Source of the DNA: Psychrobacter sp. LV10R520-6
GTDB lineage: Bacteria; Pseudomonadota; Gammaproteobacteria; Pseudomonadales; Moraxellaceae
Length of the DNA: 64,000 nt
NCBI RefSeq assembly: GCF_900182925.1
Contig: NZ_LT900024.1
Location: 62,001-126,000 of the forward strand
Reading direction: 5' to 3'
Part shown: positions 18,864-56,474 of the stretch, one piece after another
Numbering within the stretch: position 1 is the first letter of the stretch
Layout: every line of letters begins with the position of its first letter
The notes under the pieces: generated by a model
Told to the model about the DNA's origin: nothing
The model's database searches: none
What the model saw: only the letters and a program-made list of their open reading frames with translations
Translations under genes and position numbers: made by a program

Positions 18864-21753
18864 AGTGACGTACCTCGCCATTACCGCTTACGTTAGCCAC
18901 GCAGCGTGCGCATAGCTCAGGATGGGCAGCGTCAACACCGATATCATCACGGATATGCCAGCAGCGAACACATTTAGTACCATCAGCCGCGCTGATTGTC
19001 ACGGTTAAATTTGTCAATTCATCCGTACTGTCTGTATCATTATCTGTTTTGGCTTCAGCAGACGCTTCACTCATTGGCTTCAATGCCGCGGTACTGGTAA
19101 TCAGTACAAAACGCAGCTCTTCACTAAGTTTAGCCAAGCTGTCGTACATTGCGCCATCAGCATATAAAGTCGCATCAGCAGATAAGTTAGCATTTATCAA
19201 TTTATTGCCACGGGCGGTTTCGATATGTTTATTAACCATCTCTTTGGCCTGCATAATACGCTGCCAGTCATCAGAACTAATGGCACTGAGTTCAACCTCA
19301 GGAAACTCATACCACGCTTGGGTAAACACGTAACCATTTGAATTGGCATCCGTACCGTGAAGTACTTCCCATGCTTCCTGAGCGGTGAAAGACAAAATCG
19401 GCGTAATCCAGCGAATCAAGGCTTGCGCGATATGATAAATTGCCGTTTGTGCTGAACGGCGTGGTTTGCCATCCGTTTGGGTTGTGTACTGGCGGTCTTT
19501 AATGATATCTAGATAGAAACCACCTAAGTCTTGTGAGCAAAATGCAGTGATATGCTGGGTAACTTGGTGGAAGTCCATGGCATCATAAGCGCTGATGATG
19601 TCTGCTTGTACGGTTTGCGCTCGCTCAATGATGAATTTATCAAGACTGACTAGCTCATTGATGTTTACGCTATCGGTGGCTGGATTAAAGTCATCGGTAT
19701 TGGCCAATAAAAAGCGCAAAGTATTACGGATACGGCGATACATATCGATAGCGCCTTTAAATGCTGTTTTACCCGCGTTCATCTCATAGCGATAGTCATT
19801 AGAGGCAATCCATAAGCGCAACATATCCGCGCCGGTTTTATTAATCTCTTCTTGCGGAGTGATGATGTTGCCGAGTGATTTACTCATCTTACGGCCATTT
19901 TCATCGACCACAAAACCGTGAGTCAGTACTTGCTTGAATGGGGTACGCTCGTACATGGCCTCAGAAGTTAATAGCGAAGTCTGGAACCAACCGCGATGTT
20001 GGTCTGAGCCCTCTAAATACATATCCGCAGGGTTAGTCAATTCATCACGCTGCTCAAGTACGGTGAAATGAGTCGTTCCTGAATCAAACCAGACGTCTAG
20101 CGTGTCCGTTGCTTTATCATAATCAGCAGCTTCCTCTCCTAAGAAGTCTTCACAGCTGGCATCAAACCACGCTTCGACGCCGCCCTCGCTGATTCTTTGT
20201 GCCGCAGTTTCCATTAGCTCTAAAGTGTTTGGATGTAGCTCGCCGGTTTCTTTATGGATAAAGAAGGCAATTGGCACGCCCCAAGTACGCTGGCGGGAGA
20301 TGCACCAGTCCGGACGACCGTTCAGCATGGACTCAATACGATTTTTCCCCCATGCTGGGGTCCAATTCACGGTTGAGACATCAGCAAGCGCTCGCTCACG
20401 TAATCCTTTGGTTTCCATATTGATAAACCATTGCGGCGTGGCCCGAAAGATAATCGGAGACTTATGACGCCAGCAATGTGGATAGCTGTGCTCAATTTTG
20501 GTATGGCTCAATAAGTGGCCATTCTCCTGCAAAGCCGCAATGATTTTTGGATTGGCTTTATAAATATGCTCACCAGCAAATACCGCTGCAGTACTCAAAT
20601 AAACACCAGTACCGCTGACTGGATTTTCGACTGGTAAATCATATTTTAGACCTACGATATAATCGTCTAGACCATGACCAGGTGCGGTATGTACCAGACC
20701 AGTACCACTATCAGTAGTAACGTGATCACCTAAGATAATTGGTACTTGACGGTCTTCAATTAGCGGATGCTGGGCGCGCAGACCTTCAAGCTCGCAGCCT
20801 GATACCGTGGCTAACACGCCCTGATTAGTAAGCTCAAGCGCGCTTAATGCACTGTCAATCAGGTCAGTGGCTAAGAACAGATTGCCTTTTTCAGTAGCAA
20901 CCACGCTATAGTCATGCTTAGGATGTACCGTGATAGCTTGGTTGGCTGGCAAAGTCCAAGGTGTCGTGGTCCAGATGACCGCAGCAATGCCATCTTTTAG
21001 CTCAGCCTCGTCAATCTCAGCAAAGGCAGTTACTTTTTCAGTATCTAAGACATCAAAGCTAACATAAATGGCGTCGGACACTTTATCTTGGTATTCGACT
21101 TCGGCTTCAGCCAGTGCTGAACTACAATCTAAGCACCAGTTGACTGGCTTCATGCCGCGTGTAACATGACCGTTATCATAAATTTTAGCCAGTGCGCGCA
21201 CAATATTGGCTTCTTGAGCGAAGTTCATGGTCAAATAAGGATTGTCCCAATCCCCGAAGATGCCTAAACGCTTAAAGTCTGCTTTTTGTAACTCTACTTG
21301 GCTACTAGCATACTCACGGCATAGACCACGAAACTCCGTCGCCGAAACTTTTTGTCCGACTTTACCGACTTTTGCTTCGACCTTTTGCTCGATAGGCAGA
21401 CCATGACAGTCCCAACCGGGGACATAAGGCGCATCAAATCCTGATAAGGTTTTTGATTTCACGATAATGTCTTTGAGTACTTTATTGACTGCATGACCTA
21501 AGTGAATCTGCCCGTTAGCGTAGGGAGGGCCATCGTGCAAAATGTATTTAGGAGCGCCATCGCGCGCCTGGCGAATCTTGCCATAGACGTCGTCTGCTTC
21601 CCAAGCATTTAACCAATCTGGCTCACGTTTGGCCAGATTGGCACGCATTGGGAATACGGTATCAGCAAGGTTTAGGGTGTCTTTATAGTCGTGGCTGGGC
21701 TTATCATTGCTTTGTTTAGTCGTGGGCTTATCAGTCATAGATTTGTCAGTCAT
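18856..21753 (-). CDS. ileS: Isoleucyl-tRNA synthetase
   Basis: 965 aa. The class I signature HIGH is seen in [16 protein letters not shown] and the KMSKS loop in [10 protein letters not shown]. The editing (CP1) domain includes [13 protein letters not shown] and [11 protein letters not shown]. The C-terminal zinc finger is CVRCW...CARC. It charges tRNA-Ile and removes misactivated valine. The short N-terminal extension is Lys/Asp-rich; two ATGs (21753 and 21738) are possible starts and neither has a strong ribosome site. It overlaps lspA, the usual ileS-lspA operon; ribF, often upstream, is absent here. Confidence 0.98.
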
Positions 21754-22718
21754 AAAAAGGTTCTTTATTTGAAGGATGGTGTTTGGTTTATAAATATCGA
21801 TTTAGATAGTAAATTAGTGATAAAGCAAATAGTTATATAAGAAATAGGTCTACAAAATGAGTAGCCAAAATATGCGCTTATGATGTAATTCTATATTTAC
21901 TTATGAAGGCAGCTATTATATGACAAAACGGATAGGGTAAAAAGGGCTGGGCAGCTTGGCCATCGTTTTAATAATTTTAGTTGCAGACTTTAATAATTAA
22001 GTGTACAACTGTACTTAATAACGGTTTGTTTTTGTGCGAACTTATCTGTGCTAGGTTTTCTATCCAATGACAAGTCACACGCTCACTAACTGCGCTATAA
22101 CTAATCATCGGACTATTACTGATAGCCATATTATCACTAAAAAACGGCTTAATATTGGATAAATTACATCTCATCAGTAATCGTATCACCGTTAGTCCAT
22201 AAACCTTTGTTAGTCCGTAAATCGTCGTAAGTCAGCAAGCCAATCAGCAACACTCTCAACAGTATATATCTGAAGTACTTCTAAAACCATCATAGTCAGC
22301 AGACTGATAATCCCATCTGCAACTGCAAAGCCGAATAATATTTTATAGCCAAGCGCTACAGCCAACTATTATGTTGGCATATTAAATTGCTTTATTGTCT
22401 ATAAATTCTAAGCTTTGATTTTAGGCCTTGATTCTAAGATTGATAGTTCTAACGTGGACTATCAAAAATTCCGTCTATCATTAGTGTTGATCACCTAATT
22501 TTATGATGACATACAAAAGCTATGCCACCTGCAGCTGACAGTAACCGCTACGCTTAACAGTTGTCTAGATGACATGAAATACCTTCGTCACATTCAATGT
22601 CGCACAGGGTCACATCAAATAAATATAACGATTAGAAATATAATGATCAAATGGAATCAAAATCTAGCCAATCTTTACTCTAACAAGTCTTACTTTAATA
22701 ATTATGCAAGGAGCAATC
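21754..22718. other. 965-bp region between ileS and ald, no gene seen
   Basis: Divergent intergenic region with no convincing protein or known RNA gene. A 70-codon minus-strand open frame (21977-22189) has no ribosome site or family resemblance. An imperfect palindrome TTAAGTGTACAACTGTACTTAA lies near 21998-22020, and TTAGTCCATAAA/TTAGTCCGTAAA are repeated near 22193-22224. No T-box is expected for ileS in this group and none was seen. The length leaves room for a regulator-controlled ald promoter or a small RNA. Confidence 0.4.
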
Positions 22719-23834
22719 ATGAAAATAGGTATCCCAAGGGAAGTTAAAAACAACGAAAATCGTGTTGGTCTACCACCGAACGGCGTCAGCGCTTTAGCCG
22801 ATAACAGTCATGATGTTTATGTCGAAACCGATGCTGGTATCGGTTCACAGTTCACTGATGAAGATTACAAAAATGCGGGCGCAACGATCGTTGATAGCGC
22901 TGAAAAAGCATGGGATGTCGAGCTGGTCATCAAGGTCAAAGAGCCTCAAGCTGAAGAATATCAATATTTCAGAGAAAATTTAACCCTATTTACTTATCTA
23001 CATTTGGCCGCTGAACCTAAGCTTGCTAAAGCACTGGTAAATAGCAAAGTAACAGGAATCGCTTATGAGACCGTGCAGTTAGCAGATAATTCATTACCGC
23101 TCTTAACCCCAATGAGTGAGATTGCAGGGCGTATGAGCACACAAATTGGGGCACAATTTCTGCAAAGTTTTTATGGCGGTAAAGGGATTTTACTCGGTGG
23201 CGTCCCTGGCGTTAAAAAAGGTAAAGTAACTATTATCGGTGGCGGTATATCTGGTACGGAGGCGGCCAAAATTGCTATCGGTTTAGGCGCAGACGTCATT
23301 ATTTTAGACTTAGATCCCAAACGTCTCAAGCAGCTGTCTGAGCTGTTTGGCAATGATGTACAGACATTGATGTCAACCAAAGTCAATATTGCTAAAAGTG
23401 TTGCAGAAAGTGATTTGGTTATCGGTGCGGTATTGATTCCGGGCGCAGCAGCACCGAAGCTGGTCACTGAAGATATGATTGAATCGATGAATGATGGTGG
23501 CGTTGTCGTTGATATCGCTATTGACCAGGGCGGTTTGTTTGAGACCACTGACCGTATTACTACCCATGATAATCCGACTTATATTAAGCACGGCATCATC
23601 CATTATGCCGTTGCCAACATCCCTGGTGCGGTACCACGTACAGCGACTTTAGCACTATCTAATGTCACCTTGCCCTATGTACTAGCGCTGGCCAAAAAAG
23701 GCTTTAAGCAAGCTTGTATTGACAATCCTGCCTTTGCAAAGGGGGTCAACACGACTCAAGGTCATGTGACTTATAAAGCTGTTGCTGAAGCGTTAGATTA
23801 TGATTATAAGGAACTAAGCTCGTTAATAAGCTAA
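22719..23834 (+). CDS. ald: Alanine dehydrogenase
   Basis: 371 aa from [22 protein letters not shown] lies seven bases before this ATG, so the in-frame ATG at 22704 is rejected. Substrate and cofactor regions are conserved: [14 protein letters not shown], the Rossmann motif [13 protein letters not shown], and [16 protein letters not shown] near the end. It interconverts L-alanine and pyruvate plus ammonia with NAD and is usually used to catabolise alanine. It is monocistronic. In relatives Lrp/AsnC-type regulators control ald; none is adjacent here. Confidence 0.97.
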
Positions 23835-23889
23835 GCTTTTTAATTGGCTGTGTTTTTAAACCAATAAAAAATGTGAAGAAAACTAATAG

Positions 23890-23961
23890 CCTGCTAATTG
23901 TGCATGATTGTCGATGTCGATGTCGATGTCGATGAAGTGCATATATAGCAGGTTTTTTTAT
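23890..23961 (+). terminator. Terminator of ald with a simple-sequence repeat in its loop
   Basis: CCTGCTA (23890-23896) pairs with TAGCAGG (23947-23953), with partial extra pairing of GTGCA segments, followed by seven T. The intervening loop contains the hexamer array at 23911-23934. Confidence 0.7.
23911..23934 (+). repeat. Tandem hexamer TCGATG x4
   Basis: Four perfect TCGATG units lie in the loop of the ald terminator. Such short repeats change copy number by slippage. Confidence 0.9.
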
Positions 23962-24108
23962 GGTTTTAAGCCATTCGATCTTTATGAGAAGACAGTCACT
24001 AACTAAGACTGATTAACAGGCAGTTAACAATCAATTCCATAGCTTCTTTTATAGAGATTATTGAGGTTTACATAGGTTTTTAGGCAATGCAATCAGGATA
24101 TCGCATGA

Positions 24109-24385
24109 ACTACCCACTACCTAAGAGGTAGGGGTTTCTTGGGTAATACCCATACTTATTTGCGATGTTCTGCAATAGCGGTTAGGCAAGTTTACCGAGC
24201 TATCCCCCTCGCACCGAGGGTTCACATTATTGCTGTTTTCAAGCAATTCGGTGACAGACTAACGATGATGTTATTAGATTGCTCTAAAGGTCTGAAATGC
24301 TGTTCCTTAAGTAGAATTTAGCAACTAAGCGAGATTTTGTCAAGACGCATTCAGCCCACTACCTTAGAGGTAGGAGACTTCTGCG
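24109..24385 (+). ncRNA. Candidate orphan HEARO/omega-RNA-like non-autonomous element
   Basis: A compact structured unit with no protein. Both ends carry the same 20-bp hairpin-bearing sequence, CCCACTACCTWAGAGGTAGG (24113-24132 and 24355-24374, direct orientation), like LE and RE of IS200/IS605-superfamily elements. It begins directly after ATGA (24105-24108), the integration site I recall for HEARO RNAs. Inside are consecutive hairpins: GGGT/ACCC (24141-24151), TTGC/GCAA (24160-24175), ATAGC with GGT paired to ACC with GCTAT (24175-24203), CCCTCG/CGAGGG (24206-24220) and a TCAC...GTGA stem enclosing ATTGCT/AGCAAT (24222-24254). CTGCAATAGCGG at 24170-24181 resembles the conserved CUGCAUAGCGG core of IscB omega RNAs. 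No iscB or isrB follows. The strand and class are inferences. Confidence 0.5.
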
Positions 24386-24425
24386 CTAAAATGTTAAAAA
24401 TATCGCCAGTAAGAGTTATTACTAT

Positions 24426-25064
24426 TTAACCAATTGAACTAAACCAAAGTCGCAATTTAAGCGACCATAACGGTTGAATACCCGTTAGGCCTTGAGTCAT
24501 CTCGCCATCTTTTAAGATCACATATGATGGCGTTACTTGTCCCTGCCAGTCGGCGAAGATGTCACCTTTTTGATCATTGATGGTAGTAAAGTTATAACTA
24601 TGTTCGCTCAGGTAGCTGTGTAGCTCTTGGTCTGTACCCGACTTTATGGCAACAGTCACGACCGGATAATTTTCTTGCGCCGCAAGAGTATTGACCGATG
24701 GAGAAGTCGTGCGACATATTGGACACCAGGTGCCCCAAAAGTATACTAGCGTCGGCTTATCAGCACTCAACGCTGCCAAATCAACCGCCTGCCCTTGATA
24801 GTCCGTAAGTTGCAGTTGCGGATTGGCTGGCATGACAGGTTGCCGCCACCAATTAATCGCGGTATAAACCACCACAAAAACCAAGCCATAAAGTAGCATT
24901 GTTTTTACTATCGACAGTAGCTTCTGTAGTGGGCTCTTCTTAGGTCCTTTTTTATTGTCTTTTTGAGGGTTTGGCGGCTTCTTCAGCTTGACGCTTACCT
25001 TGCTAGTATTAACTTTGGTGTCCTTCTCTTTATTATTAGTTTCATTGTTGGCATCAATAGTCAT
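24426..25064 (-). CDS. Membrane-anchored thioredoxin-fold protein (TlpA/ScsD-like)
   Basis: 212 aa. A basic Lys/Asn-rich N-terminal tail (about 48 residues) is followed by one transmembrane helix (TMLLYGLVFVVVYTAI) and a periplasmic thioredoxin-like domain. The active site is C114-P-I-C117 in FWGTWCPICRTT, with the cis-Pro loop in QVTPSYVILKDG. The CPIC pair resembles ScsD-type disulfide oxidoreductases more than CcmG. It probably reduces or forms disulfides in the periplasm; partners are unknown. A terminator at 25130-25154 separates it from the upstream gene, so it has its own promoter. Confidence 0.85.
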   Translation of the reverse strand: MTIDANNETNNKEKDTKVNTSKVSVKLKKPPNPQKDNKKGPKKSPLQKLLSIVKTMLLYGLVFVVVYTAINWWRQPVMPANPQLQLTDYQGQAVDLAALSADKPTLVYFWGTWCPICRTTSPSVNTLAAQENYPVVTVAIKSGTDQELHSYLSEHSYNFTTINDQKGDIFADWQGQVTPSYVILKDGEMTQGLTGIQPLWSLKLRLWFSSIG

Positions 25065-25129
25065 GACAGCTGCTTTTTAGGTTTTGAGGTTTAGACTGTT
25101 TGTTTTATGAGCTTAAATTGCATAAAAAT

Positions 25130-25156
25130 AAACGGCTGAATAATCAGCCGTTTTAT
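25130..25156. terminator. Terminator after the GNAT-nitrilase gene
   Basis: AAACGGCTGA pairs with TCAGCCGTTT around ATAA, with A and T tracts on either side; it ends the leftward transcript from 26856. Confidence 0.88.
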
Positions 25157-25218
25157 TAAATCTTTAATTAAATCGTTTTTTTTAAGAATTCGATTTGTAA
25201 AACCTAAGATTTTAACAC

Positions 25219-26856
25219 TTAAGGTTTTTGAGCCCGACCTTGCAGCGGTTCACCCTGTAGCACGCTACCTGAGTTTTCACGGCGTTCTTCATCGCTCAGC
25301 TTACTTGCTGAGACCCGAGATTTCTTCTTCCATCTAAGGCTAAATAAGTCATCACGGCGATCAAGCAGGTTATGTACCGAGCCTTCGTTACGCACATGGG
25401 TGAGTTTATCAAGGTTAACATCGGAGAAAAATATCATTTCAGTATTAGCTGTAGTTTCGGCCATGATGGCGTCATGTGGGAAGGCAAAGTCCGATGGCGA
25501 GAAGACAGATGATTGCGCGTACTGAATATCAAGACTTTCGACTTGCGGTAAGTTACCGACTGAGCCGCAAATCATCACATAACATTCGTTTTCGATGGCG
25601 CGCGCTTGGGCGCAAAGGCGCACGCGCAGATAGCCGTTTTTGGTATCTGTCCAAAACGGTACAAACAAGATATCCATGTCTTCTAGGGCTAGCAAACGAG
25701 CTAACTCTGGGAACTCAACATCATAGCAAACTAGAATGCCAACACGACCAGCATCGGTGTCGAATACTTGTACTTTATCTCCGCCTTCAATGACCCACGC
25801 GCTACGCTCATGAGGGGTGATGTGAATCTTACGCTGTTCCTCAACAGTACCATCGCGGCGACATAAATAGCTGACATTGTATAAAACGTCATCTTCATCT
25901 AATAGCGGCATAGAGCCCACGATAACATTGACGTTATAAGTAACCGCTAAATGCGAGACTTCGTTTTTGAACCATTCGGTATAACCGGCTAAAAAGCGAA
26001 TCGCAATGTTTTGATCGGTCGACTCACACAGTCCCATCAAGGGGGCATTAAAGAACTCTGGTAAGCAGGCAAAATCAGAATTGTAATCGGCCATCACATC
26101 AACGAAAAACTCAACTTGCTGCAGGAGCTCCTCAGGGGATTCGACCTCACGCATTTGCCACTGGATACCACCAATTCGCACCTCAGACTTACGAGTGCTA
26201 GGTTTATAATCTTTCGGCTCGTAGTAAATATTTGACCATTCCAGTAAGGTTGCAAAGCCTTTCGACTGGGTGTCATCGGGTAAGTAAGCGGTCAAAATAC
26301 GCTTAACAATAAAACCATTGGACAGTTGAAATGACAACGCTGAGTCGTGAATTTCACGCGATTCAACGGCATCAATGTATTCACCTGGCGTTAAGTCTTT
26401 GTGATTATAATAATTGGGGATTCGGCCACCGGCAAGAATAGCGCGGAAGTTTAACTGTCGGCATAGCTCTTTACGAGCATCATACAGCCGACGTCCAAGA
26501 CGATAGCCACGATACTCTGGATCAATTAGCGCATCTAAGCCATAAATCGCATCACCTTTTGGATTGTCTCTGATAATGTCTTTCTGGCCAATTAAATCCT
26601 CATAGGTATGCGGGTTAGAAAACTTAGCATAATCGACGCGCATTGACAGCACAATACCAATTAGTTGGTCATGGTCAAACATGGCAATCTGCCCTTCTGG
26701 AAAGGCATCAATCAAGGTATTGATGGTGGTTCTTGACCACGATCCGCCTAAGTTAGCATAAACGCGGTCCATCAAGGCCTTTAATTGGGGGTAGTCCTTT
26801 TTCTTAATTTCAGCAATCGTTAAATGAAAGTCATCGATTTTTTCTATTTTACTCAT
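25219..26856 (-). CDS. Fusion of GNAT acetyltransferase and carbon-nitrogen hydrolase domains
   Basis: 545 aa. Residues 10-220 form a GNAT domain with the acetyl-CoA loop in YRGYRLGRRLYDARKEL. Residues 225-510 are a nitrilase-superfamily domain with the catalytic triad Glu (ACLPEFFNAP), Lys (RKIHITPHE) and Cys (ILVCYDVEFPE). This two-domain protein is widespread in bacteria; the substrate is not firmly known, but the pair implies hydrolysis of an amide and acetyl transfer to a related amine. It is cytoplasmic. No partner genes are adjacent. Confidence 0.92.
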   Translation of the reverse strand: MSKIEKIDDFHLTIAEIKKKDYPQLKALMDRVYANLGGSWSRTTINTLIDAFPEGQIAMFDHDQLIGIVLSMRVDYAKFSNPHTYEDLIGQKDIIRDNPKGDAIYGLDALIDPEYRGYRLGRRLYDARKELCRQLNFRAILAGGRIPNYYNHKDLTPGEYIDAVESREIHDSALSFQLSNGFIVKRILTAYLPDDTQSKGFATLLEWSNIYYEPKDYKPSTRKSEVRIGGIQWQMREVESPEELLQQVEFFVDVMADYNSDFACLPEFFNAPLMGLCESTDQNIAIRFLAGYTEWFKNEVSHLAVTYNVNVIVGSMPLLDEDDVLYNVSYLCRRDGTVEEQRKIHITPHERSAWVIEGGDKVQVFDTDAGRVGILVCYDVEFPELARLLALEDMDILFVPFWTDTKNGYLRVRLCAQARAIENECYVMICGSVGNLPQVESLDIQYAQSSVFSPSDFAFPHDAIMAETTANTEMIFFSDVNLDKLTHVRNEGSVHNLLDRRDDLFSLRWKKKSRVSASKLSDEERRENSGSVLQGEPLQGRAQKP

Positions 26857-27370
26857 AGTATTCCTACTTTGTGTTTTTCGTGATGTATAGCATTGAATCT
26901 TAAAGTTTGTGCTGATTTTATGGCGTTTTATTTCTACGGATTTCTACGGAATTAAGGACGACACATCTTTTTGTAACAATATTCATAAAAATTCACCAAT
27001 AATGACACATAATCGTTACAATAATTTATAAGCACAGTATCGGATTTTGAGGAGCATTTTGTTTGAATTTTTTAGCTGGTTACTAGGTATTTTAACCAGT
27101 TGCCATTAGCTAACTATTAACTGGTTACATTAAAACTGGCTTTTATATTGCTCAAATATCCAAGTGTTGCCCGACTTTTTAGCGCTTCTTATTGCGTCCG
27201 CTATGATAACAAGCTAGAAGGGCGATAACAGTTGAACGTGGTAAATATTTGCTACGCTTTTGTGAATTAATTTTTTTCGTTCCTGTTGTTTTTATTGTGG
27301 TTGTCACTTTTTGCGTTTGCTCAGTTTTATTTATTACCTACTTATCGCCGCTGCTTTTTAGGATTACTTA
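26857..27370. other. Intergenic region before the BLUF gene, with a short direct repeat
   Basis: About 510 bp. The decamer ATTTCTACGG occurs twice in tandem near 26930-26950. The rest is AT-rich and should contain the promoters of both divergent neighbours. No RNA or protein gene recognised. Confidence 0.45.
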
Positions 27371-28003
27371 ATGATGTCCTTGCAACATATTGATATGGTC
27401 AGAACTTTAAAAGAAATAGAAGAGTCAGCGCTGATTCAGCTGGTTTACGTTAGTAGCCTGACTATGATGTCGCGCTTCAACAACTCACTATTTACTGATG
27501 TAAAAAGTCGGGCGGGTGCTAATAATGAACAGCACGGTATTACTGGTATTCTGTGCTACGGTAATGGTCATTTTTTACAGTGTATCGAAGGTGAGAAAGC
27601 GCACGTATTGGTGCTGCTACAGCGCATTTCTTCTGACAAGCGTCATAAAAATATCAAGGTACTGCTGATACAAGCTATTGATCAGCGCAGTTTCGTTGAT
27701 TGGCGCATGCGCTTATTATTCTTGGAGCGCTGGCTGTGGTCACCTGCTACCAAAGAGCAAGCGACCCAACTATCAAATTTTTTGTCATTTGCACCGCATG
27801 GCTGGGAGCCTGAGCGTACCGAACAGTTTTTGCAAACCATTAAGAACTTTGAATCCGATCCACATATTAGAGCTTCAGGTATTACTTATAGCGCATTGAG
27901 CAATATGTTTCGTCATATCATCGGCCCTCATCAAGCATTCTTGGTTGTTCAGGGAATTTTAAGCCTGCTTATTGTCGTTGCTATTATACTGTTATTTTTA
28001 TAA
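27371..28003 (+). CDS. BLUF-domain blue-light photoreceptor with a C-terminal membrane helix
   Basis: 210 aa. Residues 20-120 are a BLUF domain that binds FAD: light-sensing Tyr Y26 (LVYVSS), Asn N51/N52 (AGANNEQHGITGIL) and Gln Q70 (GHFLQCIEGE) are all present, as are W111 and M113 (FVDWRMRLL), matching W104 and M106 of AppA. About 65 residues of unknown fold follow, and the protein ends in a hydrophobic helix (residues about 190-210, ILSLLIVVAIILLFL). Short BLUF proteins relay a light-driven change to protein partners; a membrane tail would place this one at the inner membrane. No obvious partner gene is adjacent. Confidence 0.9.
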   Translation: MMSLQHIDMVRTLKEIEESALIQLVYVSSLTMMSRFNNSLFTDVKSRAGANNEQHGITGILCYGNGHFLQCIEGEKAHVLVLLQRISSDKRHKNIKVLLIQAIDQRSFVDWRMRLLFLERWLWSPATKEQATQLSNFLSFAPHGWEPERTEQFLQTIKNFESDPHIRASGITYSALSNMFRHIIGPHQAFLVVQGILSLLIVVAIILLFL

Positions 28004-28060
28004 AACACTCCTGATTGGTATTTTTAATCTCTGTATTCTCCTATAAAAGCAACACCATAA

Positions 28061-28098
28061 AAAATGACGCTAAGTTTTGACACTTAGCGTCATTTTTT
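28061..28098. terminator. Bidirectional terminator between the BLUF gene and the FAD dehydrogenase gene
   Basis: AAAATGACGCTAAGT pairs with ACTTAGCGTCATTTT around TTTGAC, with A and T tracts on both sides. Confidence 0.92.
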
Positions 28099-28124
28099 AT
28101 GCAATTTTTTCTAAAGCTTTTTAT

Positions 28125-29588
28125 TTAAACATCAAAGATCTTACCGCGGTTCATAATGTTATTAGGATCAAAGACTTTTTTGATTTCCTTTAAATACTCA
28201 ATCTCAGTCGCGCTGCGGCTGTAATGTAGATAGGGCTTCTTGGTCATGCCAACGCCATGCTCAGCAGAGACTGATCCACCATACTTTTGCACGGTTTCGA
28301 ACACATATTTATTTACCACCTGACATTCAGTAAAGAAGTCATCTTTGCTCATATTTTCAGGTTTTAGAATGTTTAAATGTAAATTGCCGTCACCGATATG
28401 ACCGAACCAACAGACCTCAAAGTCAGGGTAATTACTACTGACGATATGATCAATCTCATTAATAAAATTAGGTACGTGGCTGATTAATACCGACACATCG
28501 TTCTTATAAGGGGTAAATACTGAGATGGTCTCCGAAATATATTCGCGTAGCTTCCATAGCTCTGCAGCTTGAGCCATGCTTTGGCTCATAACCCCATCGA
28601 CCACCCAGCCTTGTTCCATACAGTGTTCAAATATCGCCATTGCCTTATCCATGATCGGCTCATACGGCGATTCAAACTCAAGTAGGGTATAAAACTTGGT
28701 GCGTGATTCAAACGGCTCTTGCACTTGTCCATGCACCATTAGCTTATCAATAGCTATACTGTCAAAAAACTCAAAAGCGGTTAGGTCAATCTGAGCTTGA
28801 AAGGCAGACAGCACGTTCATGATATCGGTAAACTCATCCATGCCCAGTACCATTACCGTCAAATCTTGCGGCGGACGCTCAAGCTTAATCTGTGCATGAG
28901 TTACCAGACCTAGCGTACCTTCACTACCAATAAACAGCTGACGCAAATCATAACCGGTAGCGTTTTTGACCATGCCGCGGTTGAGGTGCAAGATATCACC
29001 TTTACCGGTAACAACGGTTAGCCCCATAATCCATTGGCGGGTCATGCCGTAACGAATAACTTTAATACCGCCAGCATTGGTACCGATATTGCCACCCATT
29101 TGGCTAGAGCCTGCCGAGGCAAAATCCACAGGGTAATATAGGTCTTTGGATTCTGCAAACTGTTGCAGCTGTTGGGTCACGACACCAGCCTCAATCTCTA
29201 CCAGGCGATCAGCCAGATAAAAAGTGCCAATATGATTCATTTTATCCATGCTAACCACAATCTCGCCATTAGCAGCGACTGCGCCAGCAGATAGGCCAGT
29301 ACGACCACCACTGGGAGTCAATACTACGTTATGCTCATTTGCTAGTAGGACAATGGCTTGTACTTGTTCGGTAGTTTTGGGAAAAACAATAGCAGCGGGC
29401 GCCGGTGCAAAGTGTTTGGTCCAATCTTTGCCCCAGTGCTCCAGACTTTCAGCATCGGTTTTGATTTGCGTACTATCAAATTGGCACTTGTCTGTAAGCG
29501 TACTTAAAATCACTTGGACAGCAGTGCTATTGGCATTTGAGTCGGTATTATGATGGAAGTCGGCGGTAGGCAGGTTTGATGCAGTCAT
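28125..29588 (-). CDS. FAD-binding dehydrogenase, D-2-hydroxyglutarate dehydrogenase/GlcD-like
   Basis: 487 aa. The PCMH-type FAD-binding domain is seen in TPSGGRTGLSAGAVA, FASAGSSQMGGNIGTNAGGIKVIRYG split across two motifs (GSSQMGGNIGTNAGG, then RYGMTR) and GSEGTLGLVTHA. The C-terminal domain has the metal-binding H-x-GDGNLHLN and SAEHGVGMTK. It is divergent from serA. In pseudomonads a D-2-hydroxyglutarate dehydrogenase next to serA removes the D-2-hydroxyglutarate that SerA makes while regenerating NAD, so that role is likely. D-lactate or glycolate oxidation is the alternative. Confidence 0.88.
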   Translation of the reverse strand: MTASNLPTADFHHNTDSNANSTAVQVILSTLTDKCQFDSTQIKTDAESLEHWGKDWTKHFAPAPAAIVFPKTTEQVQAIVLLANEHNVVLTPSGGRTGLSAGAVAANGEIVVSMDKMNHIGTFYLADRLVEIEAGVVTQQLQQFAESKDLYYPVDFASAGSSQMGGNIGTNAGGIKVIRYGMTRQWIMGLTVVTGKGDILHLNRGMVKNATGYDLRQLFIGSEGTLGLVTHAQIKLERPPQDLTVMVLGMDEFTDIMNVLSAFQAQIDLTAFEFFDSIAIDKLMVHGQVQEPFESRTKFYTLLEFESPYEPIMDKAMAIFEHCMEQGWVVDGVMSQSMAQAAELWKLREYISETISVFTPYKNDVSVLISHVPNFINEIDHIVSSNYPDFEVCWFGHIGDGNLHLNILKPENMSKDDFFTECQVVNKYVFETVQKYGGSVSAEHGVGMTKKPYLHYSRSATEIEYLKEIKKVFDPNNIMNRGKIFDV

Positions 29589-29978
29589 GATAGTCTCGAA
29601 TGTTTATCAAATTTGTAGTAATAGAGAAGAGTATGGGGCTAAAAAAATTTATAGTAAATTAAGTAACTTGTTAGAATCTATTTAAAATCCATTTTAAGAT
29701 TCATCTATAGCCGAGTTAAAACTTACTGTTATTAAAAATGTTTTATCATCCAACTCTAATATTATCACACTGCTGACAGATAGCTAGAATAGCTTAACAG
29801 TCAAAATTGATATCATAGCGTAAAATAGTAACTATTTATTTGGGCTTCTCCTCTAACATCATGGCTTGATTTTGTGTAAGATAATCTAATGGTTTTCTTT
29901 TCATTCATCGCAGACTATTTATCTGGTAATCTATCAGCGAACCGGCAGGTTATCAGACAATTATAGGACAGGTTTCAC
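29589..29978. promoter_or_regulatory. Divergent promoter region of the FAD dehydrogenase gene and serA
   Basis: 390 bp, AT-rich, no gene. Both genes are read outwards from it, so co-regulation from this region is likely. No specific operator was recognised. Confidence 0.45.
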
Positions 29979-31205
29979 ATGGTATTATCACTACAAAAAG
30001 ATAAAATCCGGTTTCTATTACTTGAAGGTTTACACGAGAACGCCTTAAAAGTACTACAAGCTGCTGGCTATCAAAATATCGAATATCTCAGTCATGCACT
30101 GGATCAAGATGAGCTGATCGAAAAGATTAAAGATGCGCATTTTGTTGGCATTCGTTCGCGTACCCAGTTGACTCGTGAAGTACTTGAGCAGGCCCAAAAG
30201 CTTATTGGCATCGGCTGCTTTTGTATTGGCACCAACCAAGTCGATTTGGAAGCCGCTCGCGAGCTGGGTATTCCGGTTTTTAACGCCCCGTATTCAAATA
30301 CGCGCTCGGTTGCTGAGCTCGTATTAGCAGAAGCTGTTATGCTTTACCGCGGCATCCCTGAAAAGAACGCTATTGTTCATCGCGGTGGTTGGGGTAAGTC
30401 GGCTAAGAACTCAAATGAAGTACGCGGCAAGACTATCGGTATCGTCGGTTATGGCTCTATCGGCTCACAGTTGTCAGTATTGGCTGAAAGCTTTGGCATG
30501 AAAGTCATTTATCATGATGTTATGACTAAACTACCTTTGGGTAACGCCCATCAAGTCAGCAGCTTAAATGAATTGTTGTCACAAGCAGATATCGTCACCT
30601 TACATGTTCCTGATGAGCCCAGCACTCGCTATATGATGAAAGCGGAGCAGTTTGCGCAGATGAAAGAGGGTAGTTATTTTATCAATGCGGCACGCGGTAC
30701 TTGTGTTGAGATTGATGATCTAGCGGCGGTACTAGAGTCAGGCAAGGTCTTAGGCGCTGCGATTGATGTGTTCCCTAAAGAGCCAAAATCTGCTGATCAA
30801 GAGTTTGAATCACCGTTACGTAAATTCGACAATGTTATCTTAACCCCGCATGTCGGGGGCTCAACTCAAGAAGCGCAAGCCAATATTGGTTTAGAAGTGG
30901 CTGAAAAATTCGTCAGATATTCTGACCAAGGCGATACCATCACTGCGGTGAACTTCCCAGAGGTTTCTATTCCGTTTAAAGAAGGGACTCATCGTCTGCT
31001 ACATATTCATAGAAACGTTTCCGGCGTCTTGTCGCAGATTAACCGTCTGTTCGCTGAGGCGCATATCAATATCCTAGCCCAAAGCTTGATGACTGAAGGT
31101 GAGGTTGGCTATTTAATGATGGACGTTGATTATCATGATTCGGACGCTGCCCTTGATCAGCTCAAAGATGTGGAAGAGACCATTCGTATCCGTATTTTAT
31201 TTTAA
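29979..31205 (+). CDS. serA: D-3-phosphoglycerate dehydrogenase
   Basis: 408 aa, like the E. coli-type enzyme with one ACT domain. The substrate-binding IRSRTQLT and CIGTNQVDL, the Rossmann motif GIVGYGSIGSQL, the catalytic INAARGTCVE and the His-bearing LTPHVGGSTQEAQ are present. The C-terminal ACT domain (HRNVSGVLSQINRLFAEAHIN) would mediate serine feedback inhibition. It makes the first committed step of serine synthesis and also reduces 2-oxoglutarate. A strong terminator follows. Confidence 0.97.
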   Translation: MVLSLQKDKIRFLLLEGLHENALKVLQAAGYQNIEYLSHALDQDELIEKIKDAHFVGIRSRTQLTREVLEQAQKLIGIGCFCIGTNQVDLEAARELGIPVFNAPYSNTRSVAELVLAEAVMLYRGIPEKNAIVHRGGWGKSAKNSNEVRGKTIGIVGYGSIGSQLSVLAESFGMKVIYHDVMTKLPLGNAHQVSSLNELLSQADIVTLHVPDEPSTRYMMKAEQFAQMKEGSYFINAARGTCVEIDDLAAVLESGKVLGAAIDVFPKEPKSADQEFESPLRKFDNVILTPHVGGSTQEAQANIGLEVAEKFVRYSDQGDTITAVNFPEVSIPFKEGTHRLLHIHRNVSGVLSQINRLFAEAHINILAQSLMTEGEVGYLMMDVDYHDSDAALDQLKDVEETIRIRILF

Positions 31206-55858: not shown

Positions 55859-55934
55859 GCCGACTTAGCTCAGTTGGTAGAGCAACGCACTTGTAATGCG
55901 TAGGTCGCCAGTTCGAACCCGGCAGTCGGCACCA
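55859..55934 (+). tRNA. tRNA-Thr (anticodon TGT)
   Basis: 76 nt with encoded CCA. Acceptor GCCGACT pairs with AGTCGGC; the anticodon stem ACGCA/TGCGT encloses CTTGTAA, anticodon TGT. It is first in a four-tRNA cluster upstream of tuf, like thrU-tyrU-glyT-thrT-tufB of E. coli. Confidence 0.96.
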
Positions 55935-56017
55935 TTTCTTTCAAAGTAGCTTTTTTTAGAATTACTTTAATTTGAATTTATTTTGATTAAAAGTGACTTT
56001 TATAAAAAGCAACCTAA

Positions 56018-56101
56018 GGTGGGATTGGGGAGCGGTCAAACCCAACAGACTGTAAATCTGTCGCGAAAGCTTCGAAGGTTCGAATCCTTCTCCCACCACC
56101 A
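56018..56101 (+). tRNA. tRNA-Tyr (anticodon GTA)
   Basis: 84 nt with a long variable arm and encoded CCA. Acceptor GGTGGGA pairs with TCCCACC; the anticodon loop CTGTAAA gives GTA. Confidence 0.96.
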
Positions 56102-56198
56102 TATTTTTCTAAAGTTTGTCATAGCGCCAAGCATACTCTAAACCAAAACAGCTACTGGTTTGACACCAAGACTGTTTTTGGTTAAATATAGAGTTAAT

Positions 56199-56272
56199 GC
56201 GGGTGTGGTATAATGGTAACACCTTAGCCTTCCAAGCTAATGACGCGGGTTCGATTCCCGCCACCCGCTCCA
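56199..56272 (+). tRNA. tRNA-Gly (anticodon TCC)
   Basis: 74 nt with encoded CCA. Acceptor GCGGGTG pairs with CACCCGC; the stem TTAGC/GCTAA encloses CTTCCAA, anticodon TCC. Confidence 0.96.
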
Positions 56273-56399
56273 TACATGTGGCATCAATCGCAAATGGTAG
56301 CTTTAAATAGCGACGAATAATTCATCATGACAGTCAGCTGATATAGCTTATACTGCTTCGTGATATTTTTTAGTATAACCTACTGGTTGTCTAAAATAC

Positions 56400-56474
<75 letters not shown>

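What the first reader, a model, noticed from the sequence alone, without database searches (positions are those of the whole stretch)
24109..24385. Orphan HEARO/omega-RNA-like element with no nuclease gene
A 275-bp unit has identical 20-bp hairpin-bearing sequences at both ends in direct orientation and five successive internal hairpins. It carries a CTGCAATAGCGG core resembling that of IscB omega RNAs and starts right after ATGA, the site I recall for HEARO insertions. No iscB/isrB gene is present. It may be a non-autonomous mobile RNA element that depends on a transposase and perhaps an IscB elsewhere, or a domesticated guide RNA. If it follows IscB logic, the guide would be the bases just left of 24109.
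Basis: partly seen in the sequence, partly recalled or inferred. Interest (0 to 1): 0.72.

Follow-up and report, generated by a model that had tools for sequence, protein, structure and literature searches.

The report
Gene-less transposon carrying TnpB guide RNA
A 289-base mobile DNA element with no genes of its own carries, on the opposite strand from the one first read, a complete guide-RNA scaffold of the TnpB type (TnpB is an ancestor of Cas12), so it may borrow both the transposase and the RNA-guided nuclease of larger elements in the same bacterium.

Summary
The element is real but was misread. It is not HEARO/IscB: no Rfam HEARO hit at E<=10 on either strand. It is a non-autonomous IS200/IS605 element (PATE-type) of 289 bp, window 24393-24105, on the MINUS strand. 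Six copies, 98-100% identical, lie in the genome, and a 90% relative in one other Psychrobacter genome. Two copies have base-exact empty sites in relatives: insertion directly after TTTAA, no duplication. "ATGA" is the element's own end (TCAT), not the target. Bases 24222-24105(-) are a TnpB reRNA/omegaRNA scaffold: a covariance model built only from 28 tnpB-linked right ends finds it at 125.9 bits, E 6.6e-24, with conserved, covarying pairs. Of 88 strong model hits in 105 genomes, 78 have tnpB sequence upstream, 3 lie at contig ends, 7 (these copies) have none. They carry instead a 119-bp middle not traceable to tnpA/tnpB, and a sigma70-like promoter pointing at the scaffold. Best reading: a mobile, self-transcribed guide RNA that uses TnpA and TnpB in trans. 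Anatomy and family are shown; transcription, TnpB use and mobility by TnpA are inferred.

The parts
24105..24393 (-). the whole 289-bp gene-less IS200/IS605 (PATE-type) element, left end at 24393, right end at 24105
   Evidence: same length in L002-L006 and the G017 copy, window copy by the same arithmetic; base-exact empty sites for L004 and L006
24394..24398 (-). TTTAA, target of insertion and presumed TAM
   Evidence: TTTAA before 6 of 7 full copies, ATTAA before the seventh, L005; TTTAA at the join of empty sites
24342..24393 (-). left end with subterminal hairpin (24355-24376)
   Evidence: matches left ends of tnpB elements in own and related genomes
24315..24343 (-). promoter-like site TTGACA-17-TAAATT (10 of 12, TG before the second hexamer) pointing at the scaffold
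   Evidence: 48 of 2000 shuffles of the element have a site as good on that strand; G017 copy keeps TTGACA and TG with TAAGTT
24223..24341 (-). middle/leader of 119 bp, found only in these gene-less elements
   Evidence: 3 of 299 family genomes match; not above chance in 13 of 14 tnpB elements, 3 of 60 shuffles reach the score in the 14th
24105..24222 (-). TnpB reRNA/omegaRNA scaffold, 118 nt
   Evidence: model R1 (built without these copies) 125.9 bits, E 6.6e-24; covariation
24113..24134 (-). right-end subterminal hairpin, also the last hairpin of the scaffold
24085..24104 (-). presumed 20-nt guide (GCGATATCCTGATTGCATTG)
   Evidence: directly follows TCAT; in G092 and G073 the related sequence directly follows TTTTAA

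Best explanation
It is a gene-less IS200/IS605 element that keeps both transposase-type ends and the complete reRNA scaffold of a TnpB element, with a short middle and its own promoter-like site in place of tnpA/tnpB. Shown: copies, boundaries, insertion after TTTAA, scaffold identity and conserved pairing, presence of tnpA and tnpB elsewhere in the genome. Inferred: resident Y1 transposase TnpA moves it as single-stranded DNA; it is transcribed on the minus strand from the site at 24343-24315; a resident TnpB binds (perhaps trims) this RNA and uses the 16-20 nt beyond TCAT as guide to cut the TTTAA-plus-flank joint left by excision, or an empty allele, so that repair restores the copy.
For: Six copies at 98-100%, a 90% full copy in G017, 289 bp each. 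Empty sites. Right end 82-89% like the 3' ends of five tnpB elements in the same genome, two of which carry tnpA. Model hit E 6.6e-24. 12 of 32 pairs with changes on both sides, 99.4% of cells paired. Private changes 2-3 per gene-less copy against 0-6 in tnpB-linked scaffolds. TnpB of L017 has OrfB_IS605 and TNB domains and aligns over residues 7-370 with solved TnpB (E 2.1e-64), D, E, D at the places I recall as the RuvC triad. Promoter-like site. The keep-by-cutting model for TnpB is from PMC8612924 (passages).
Against: No RNA or biochemical data. The promoter could be chance (48 of 2000 shuffles) and is degraded in the G086 relative. All three gene-less scaffold rows carry A at column 20, where the tnpB-linked rows all have T, and two G000 rows also C at column 33; column 20 may lie in a pseudoknot (my inference, not tested). 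With leader and guide attached the predicted fold keeps the first and last hairpins but changes the middle helices. The pair-type measure does not exceed shuffles (28 against 30.1).
Confidence: 0.5

Rival explanations
1. A passive PATE: a derivative moved by TnpA in trans whose reRNA-like right end is an inherited relic, not transcribed or not used by TnpB.
For: PATEs of IS605-type elements are known (PMC3119063, passages), one with a full 160-nt right end (PMC7290912, section read). The right-end hairpin is also a transposase-type end. Scaffold changes at column 20.
Against: The scaffold keeps 118 nt with compensated pairs, more than the terminal hairpin, whereas other relics in the same genome keep only a single hairpin. 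Promoter-like site upstream. Scaffold 95% alike between the G000 and G017 copies, against 89% for the left end and 91% for the aligned part of the middle; 5 of the 6 scaffold differences are at unpaired columns, small numbers.
Confidence: 0.42
2. Domesticated guide RNA serving the host by directing a TnpB-like protein to a fixed gene.
For: It lacks a nuclease gene and has a promoter-like site.
Against: Six copies with six guides. The window site and the sites of L004 and L006 lack the element in relatives. No second match to TTTAA plus the window guide at up to 3 mismatches.
Confidence: 0.03
3. Orphan HEARO/IscB omegaRNA on the plus strand, as first proposed.
For: Superficial: hairpins, a recalled core motif, ATGA at the left end.
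Against: No HEARO hit at E<=10; none in the whole genome (but its control rang in none of 14 genomes, so that search alone is weak). Strong TnpB-scaffold match on the other strand. Empty sites join at TTTAA.
Confidence: 0.01

Closest known systems
PATEs of IS605-type transposons (Haloquadratum walsbyi, PMC3119063, passages)
   Same: no genes, subterminal palindromes, no target duplication, ends related to resident IS605-type elements, core deletions leaving terminal relics
   Different: in the passages seen no guide RNA is discussed; here a whole reRNA scaffold is kept and a promoter-like site is added
PATE-like sequence of Halanaerobium hydrogeniformans (PMC7290912, section 3.8 read)
   Same: about 271 nt, left-end hairpin plus an entire 160-nt right end
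   Different: single copy and a plain deletion that keeps the last 58 nt of tnpB; here six copies and a middle not traceable to tnpB
TnpB reRNA/omegaRNA of IS200/IS605 elements (ISDra2, PMC8612924, passages)
   Same: scaffold at the right end, ends at the element boundary, guide = flank, target motif at the left end serves as TAM
   Different: there encoded with tnpB in the same element; here no tnpB
HEARO / IscB omegaRNA (recalled; Rfam RF02033 tested)
   Same: works-like parallel only: a guide-RNA element without its nuclease gene
   Different: other nuclease family, scaffold, target site and strand

Membership tests
HEARO / IscB omegaRNA | match to the Rfam HEARO covariance model | tested here: not met
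   no hit at E<=10, both strands
   ATGA belongs to the element; empty sites join after TTTAA
HEARO / IscB omegaRNA | iscB/isrB gene adjacent or in the genome | not tested
   none seen in the ORF list of 20000-30000; no profile search was run
PATE of the IS200/IS605 family | no coding sequence for a transposase | tested here: met
   longest listed ORF over the element is 60 aa; no tnpA/tnpB match in L001-L006 inside the element
PATE of the IS200/IS605 family | subterminal palindromes related to those of resident IS200/IS605 elements | tested here: met
PATE of the IS200/IS605 family | insertion 3' of a short fixed target without duplication | tested here: met
   base-exact for two of six copies; TTTAA before 6 of 7 copies
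PATE of the IS200/IS605 family | a matching Y1 transposase in the genome | tested here: met
   tnpA in L018 and L020, Y1_Tnp domain
PATE of the IS200/IS605 family | mobilised by TnpA in trans | not testable with these tools
   needs an excision assay
TnpB reRNA/omegaRNA | match to a scaffold model built from tnpB-linked right ends | tested here: met
   125.9 bits, E 6.6e-24
TnpB reRNA/omegaRNA | conserved secondary structure with compensatory changes | tested here: met
TnpB reRNA/omegaRNA | scaffold ends at the element boundary, variable flank follows as guide | tested here: met
TnpB reRNA/omegaRNA | conserved pseudoknot | not tested
   only inspected by eye; column 20 changed in gene-less copies
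TnpB reRNA/omegaRNA | transcribed, bound by TnpB, guides cleavage | not testable with these tools
   no RNA or protein data; only a promoter-like site

The most novel reading that the evidence does not exclude
The mobile unit is the guide-RNA gene itself: promoter, leader and reRNA scaffold wrapped in transposon ends, parasitising both the transposase and the RNA-guided nuclease of resident IS200/IS605 elements in trans, and acquiring a new guide at every jump so that TnpB enforces its retention.
Probability: 0.5. Interest if true: 0.62.

Novelty: new variant of a known kind. Interest (0 to 1): 0.45.

Why it matters
If the RNA is made and used, TnpB serves other elements as well as its own, and gene-less elements gain retention from a nuclease they do not encode. 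Six near-identical copies with six guides, two of them with base-exact empty sites in relatives, make this directly testable. It would also show a guide-RNA gene separated from its nuclease gene while still paired with it, a separation also seen between Cas12 and its RNA loci (inference).

Tried and rejected
HEARO/IscB reading: rejected. Other Rfam families: only chance-level matches near the element, four tRNAs at gathering in the whole window, nothing for the tnpB-linked relative L017 3950-4260 or for 12 loci at gathering.

Origin of the middle in tnpA/tnpB: against 14 elements, 3 to 54 of 60 shuffles reach the score (lowest L059, 3 of 60), so no origin is shown.

Plasmids: no match. Phages: 16 Streptococcus phage records match the scaffold at 73.5% in the listed rows; the two opened are complete tnpA+tnpB elements, not stand-alone RNAs.

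Extra target of the window guide: only its own place.

Papers: listings (20 of 24 shown; 25 of 57; 8 of 8; 15 of 21; 6 of 6; 12 of 72) showed no title or abstract start about a stand-alone TnpB reRNA in a gene-less element; the library holds open-licence papers only. PMC12558985 held none of the terms asked and PMC11656645 gave only reference-list passages. Meers 2023, the paper under PMC10691335 and the one under PMC8929163 are not held, so whether they mention such elements is unknown. Novelty is therefore not claimed beyond these searches.

Weak points found on the way: the window site in G092 and G073 is not a simple empty site (36 bp lie between the matched flanks); the L003 site in G092 matches only up to TTTAA; no match spanning the join was listed for L002 or L005, and the L005 right flank is a repeated sequence (list cut).

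Full report
What is there. The window lies in a 3.22-Mb single-contig genome. A same-genus relative, G086, has a 505,034-base contig with this element's middle, and the one contig found with a 21-base piece of that middle is a 505,034-base contig of Psychrobacter sp. APC 3426; I take the genus to be Psychrobacter. The named region belongs to a repeat with six full copies in the genome, the window's included, at 98-100% identity. In one orientation L002-L006 and a 90% copy in G017 are each 289 bp from YATTTTA to GGGTAGTTCAT; the window copy is 24393 to 24105, minus strand. G086 has a relative whose right end is largely lost.

Orientation and family. L018 and L020 also carry tnpA. L017 TnpB and L018 TnpB have OrfB_IS605 and Cas12f1-like TNB domains, L018 TnpA has Y1_Tnp. 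L017 TnpB aligns over residues 7-370 with solved TnpB chains (8h1j, E 2.1e-64) and shows D, E and D at the places I recall as the RuvC triad of ISDra2 TnpB.

Insertion sites. Of the six own copies, two (L004 in G073, L006 in G092) have a continuous empty site in a relative: the join falls exactly after TTTAA, without TCAT/ATGA and without duplication. L003 in G092 agrees only up to TTTAA. At the window site G092 and G073 lack the element and have TTTTAA directly before the sequence that is the guide here, but hold 36 bp between the matched flanks; a deletion between TTTTA repeats in the window lineage is my inference. For L002 and L005 no spanning match was listed. TTTAA precedes 6 of 7 full copies, ATTAA the seventh.

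The RNA. One search gave 32 distinct right ends; I left out four rows of the gene-less element and aligned the other 28 (27 distinct). In each an ORF stops between 16 bases before and 100 bases after the scaffold start; at least one (L029) is a broken tnpB. Model R1 was built from these 28 only. It finds 24222-24105(-) at 125.9 bits, E 6.6e-24; the only other window match up to E 1 is the left-end hairpin at E 0.23. With three gene-less rows added, the 32 predicted pairs hold in 99.4% of cells, 12 pairs and 69 cells have changes on both sides against means of 8.0 and 17.0 in shuffles (0 of 500 reach them) and at most 3 and 7 when slid. The measure of further pair types does not exceed the shuffles (28 against 30.1, 482 of 500 reach it). 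The structure comes from these sequences and shuffles ignore relatedness. Of 57 columns invariant in tnpB-linked rows, two are changed in the window copy; private changes are 2, 3 and 2 in the gene-less rows against 0-6 in the others. The model's E-values are rough by its own statement.

How unusual it is. R1 over 105 genus genomes gave 92 hits in 25 genomes, 88 above 112 bits and 4 below 49. At most 35 candidates per genome were scored with stricter filters, and G086 alone has 33 hits, so counts are lower bounds. All 88 strong hits were looked at: 78 have whole or partial tnpB sequence upstream, 3 in G086 sit at contig ends and cannot be judged, 7 have none (6 in G000, 1 in G017). Those seven are this element. 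Their 119-bp middle is found in 3 of 299 family genomes and does not align to tnpA/tnpB elements beyond chance (3 to 54 of 60 shuffles reach the score in 14 elements).

The promoter. On the minus strand 24343-24315 reads TTGACA-17-TAAATT with TG before the second hexamer, the best of four promoter-like sites in 23800-24700, where shuffles give 2.3 on average. In 2000 dinucleotide shuffles of the element 48 have a site as good on that strand. G017 keeps TTGACA and the TG with TAAGTT; in the G086 relative both hexamers are altered. Suggestive, not proof. The scaffold alone folds close to the family shape; with leader and guide the first and last hairpins stay and the middle helices change.

Mechanism. 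TnpB with its reRNA cuts TAM-plus-guide targets, the excision joint is such a target, and repair can reinstate the element (PMC8612924, passages). TnpB can trim its RNA at the 5' side (PMC10278001, abstract and passages). IS200/IS605 scaffolds end at the element boundary (PMC10711439, passages). [quoted passage not shown] Applied in trans to this element these give the best explanation. Transcription, TnpB binding, cutting and movement by TnpA are inferred. The main rival is a passive PATE (PMC3119063, passages; PMC7290912, passages and one section).

Verdict. Gene-less IS200/IS605 element with a complete TnpB reRNA scaffold on the minus strand: about 0.95. RNA made and used in trans: about 0.5. 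New variant of a known kind.

Noticed in passing
L023 3035-3086 and L024 about 2176-2227 (own genome): Single-hairpin relics: left end, one hairpin and right end TCAT fused, as expected from recombination between the two direct hairpins with loss of the core; such core deletions are described for PATEs in PMC3119063 (passages).
   Followed up: partly
L019 1769-1836 (own genome): A copy cut at its 5' side that keeps only the last 68 bases of the right end, 100% identical to the window element.
   Followed up: no
window 24394-24398 and L055/L056: G092 and G073 carry 36 bp at the window's insertion site that the window lineage lacks, bounded by TTTTA repeats.
   Followed up: partly
G086 (33 hits): One relative carries at least 33 TnpB scaffolds; most of those with room upstream have tnpB but no tnpA match in the stretch fetched.
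   Followed up: no
L004 2260-2865 (-): A distant TnpB relative (29% identity to L018 TnpB over residues 143-369) lies about 470 bp from another gene-less copy.
   Followed up: no
L180 and L181 4001-4114: Streptococcus thermophilus phages carry an IS200/IS605 element (tnpA+tnpB) whose right end is 73.5% like this scaffold.
   Followed up: partly
window 23910-23934: GTCGAT tandem repeat in the same intergenic region, 12 bp shorter in G092.
   Followed up: no
window 55859-56471: Four tRNA genes in a row.
   Followed up: no
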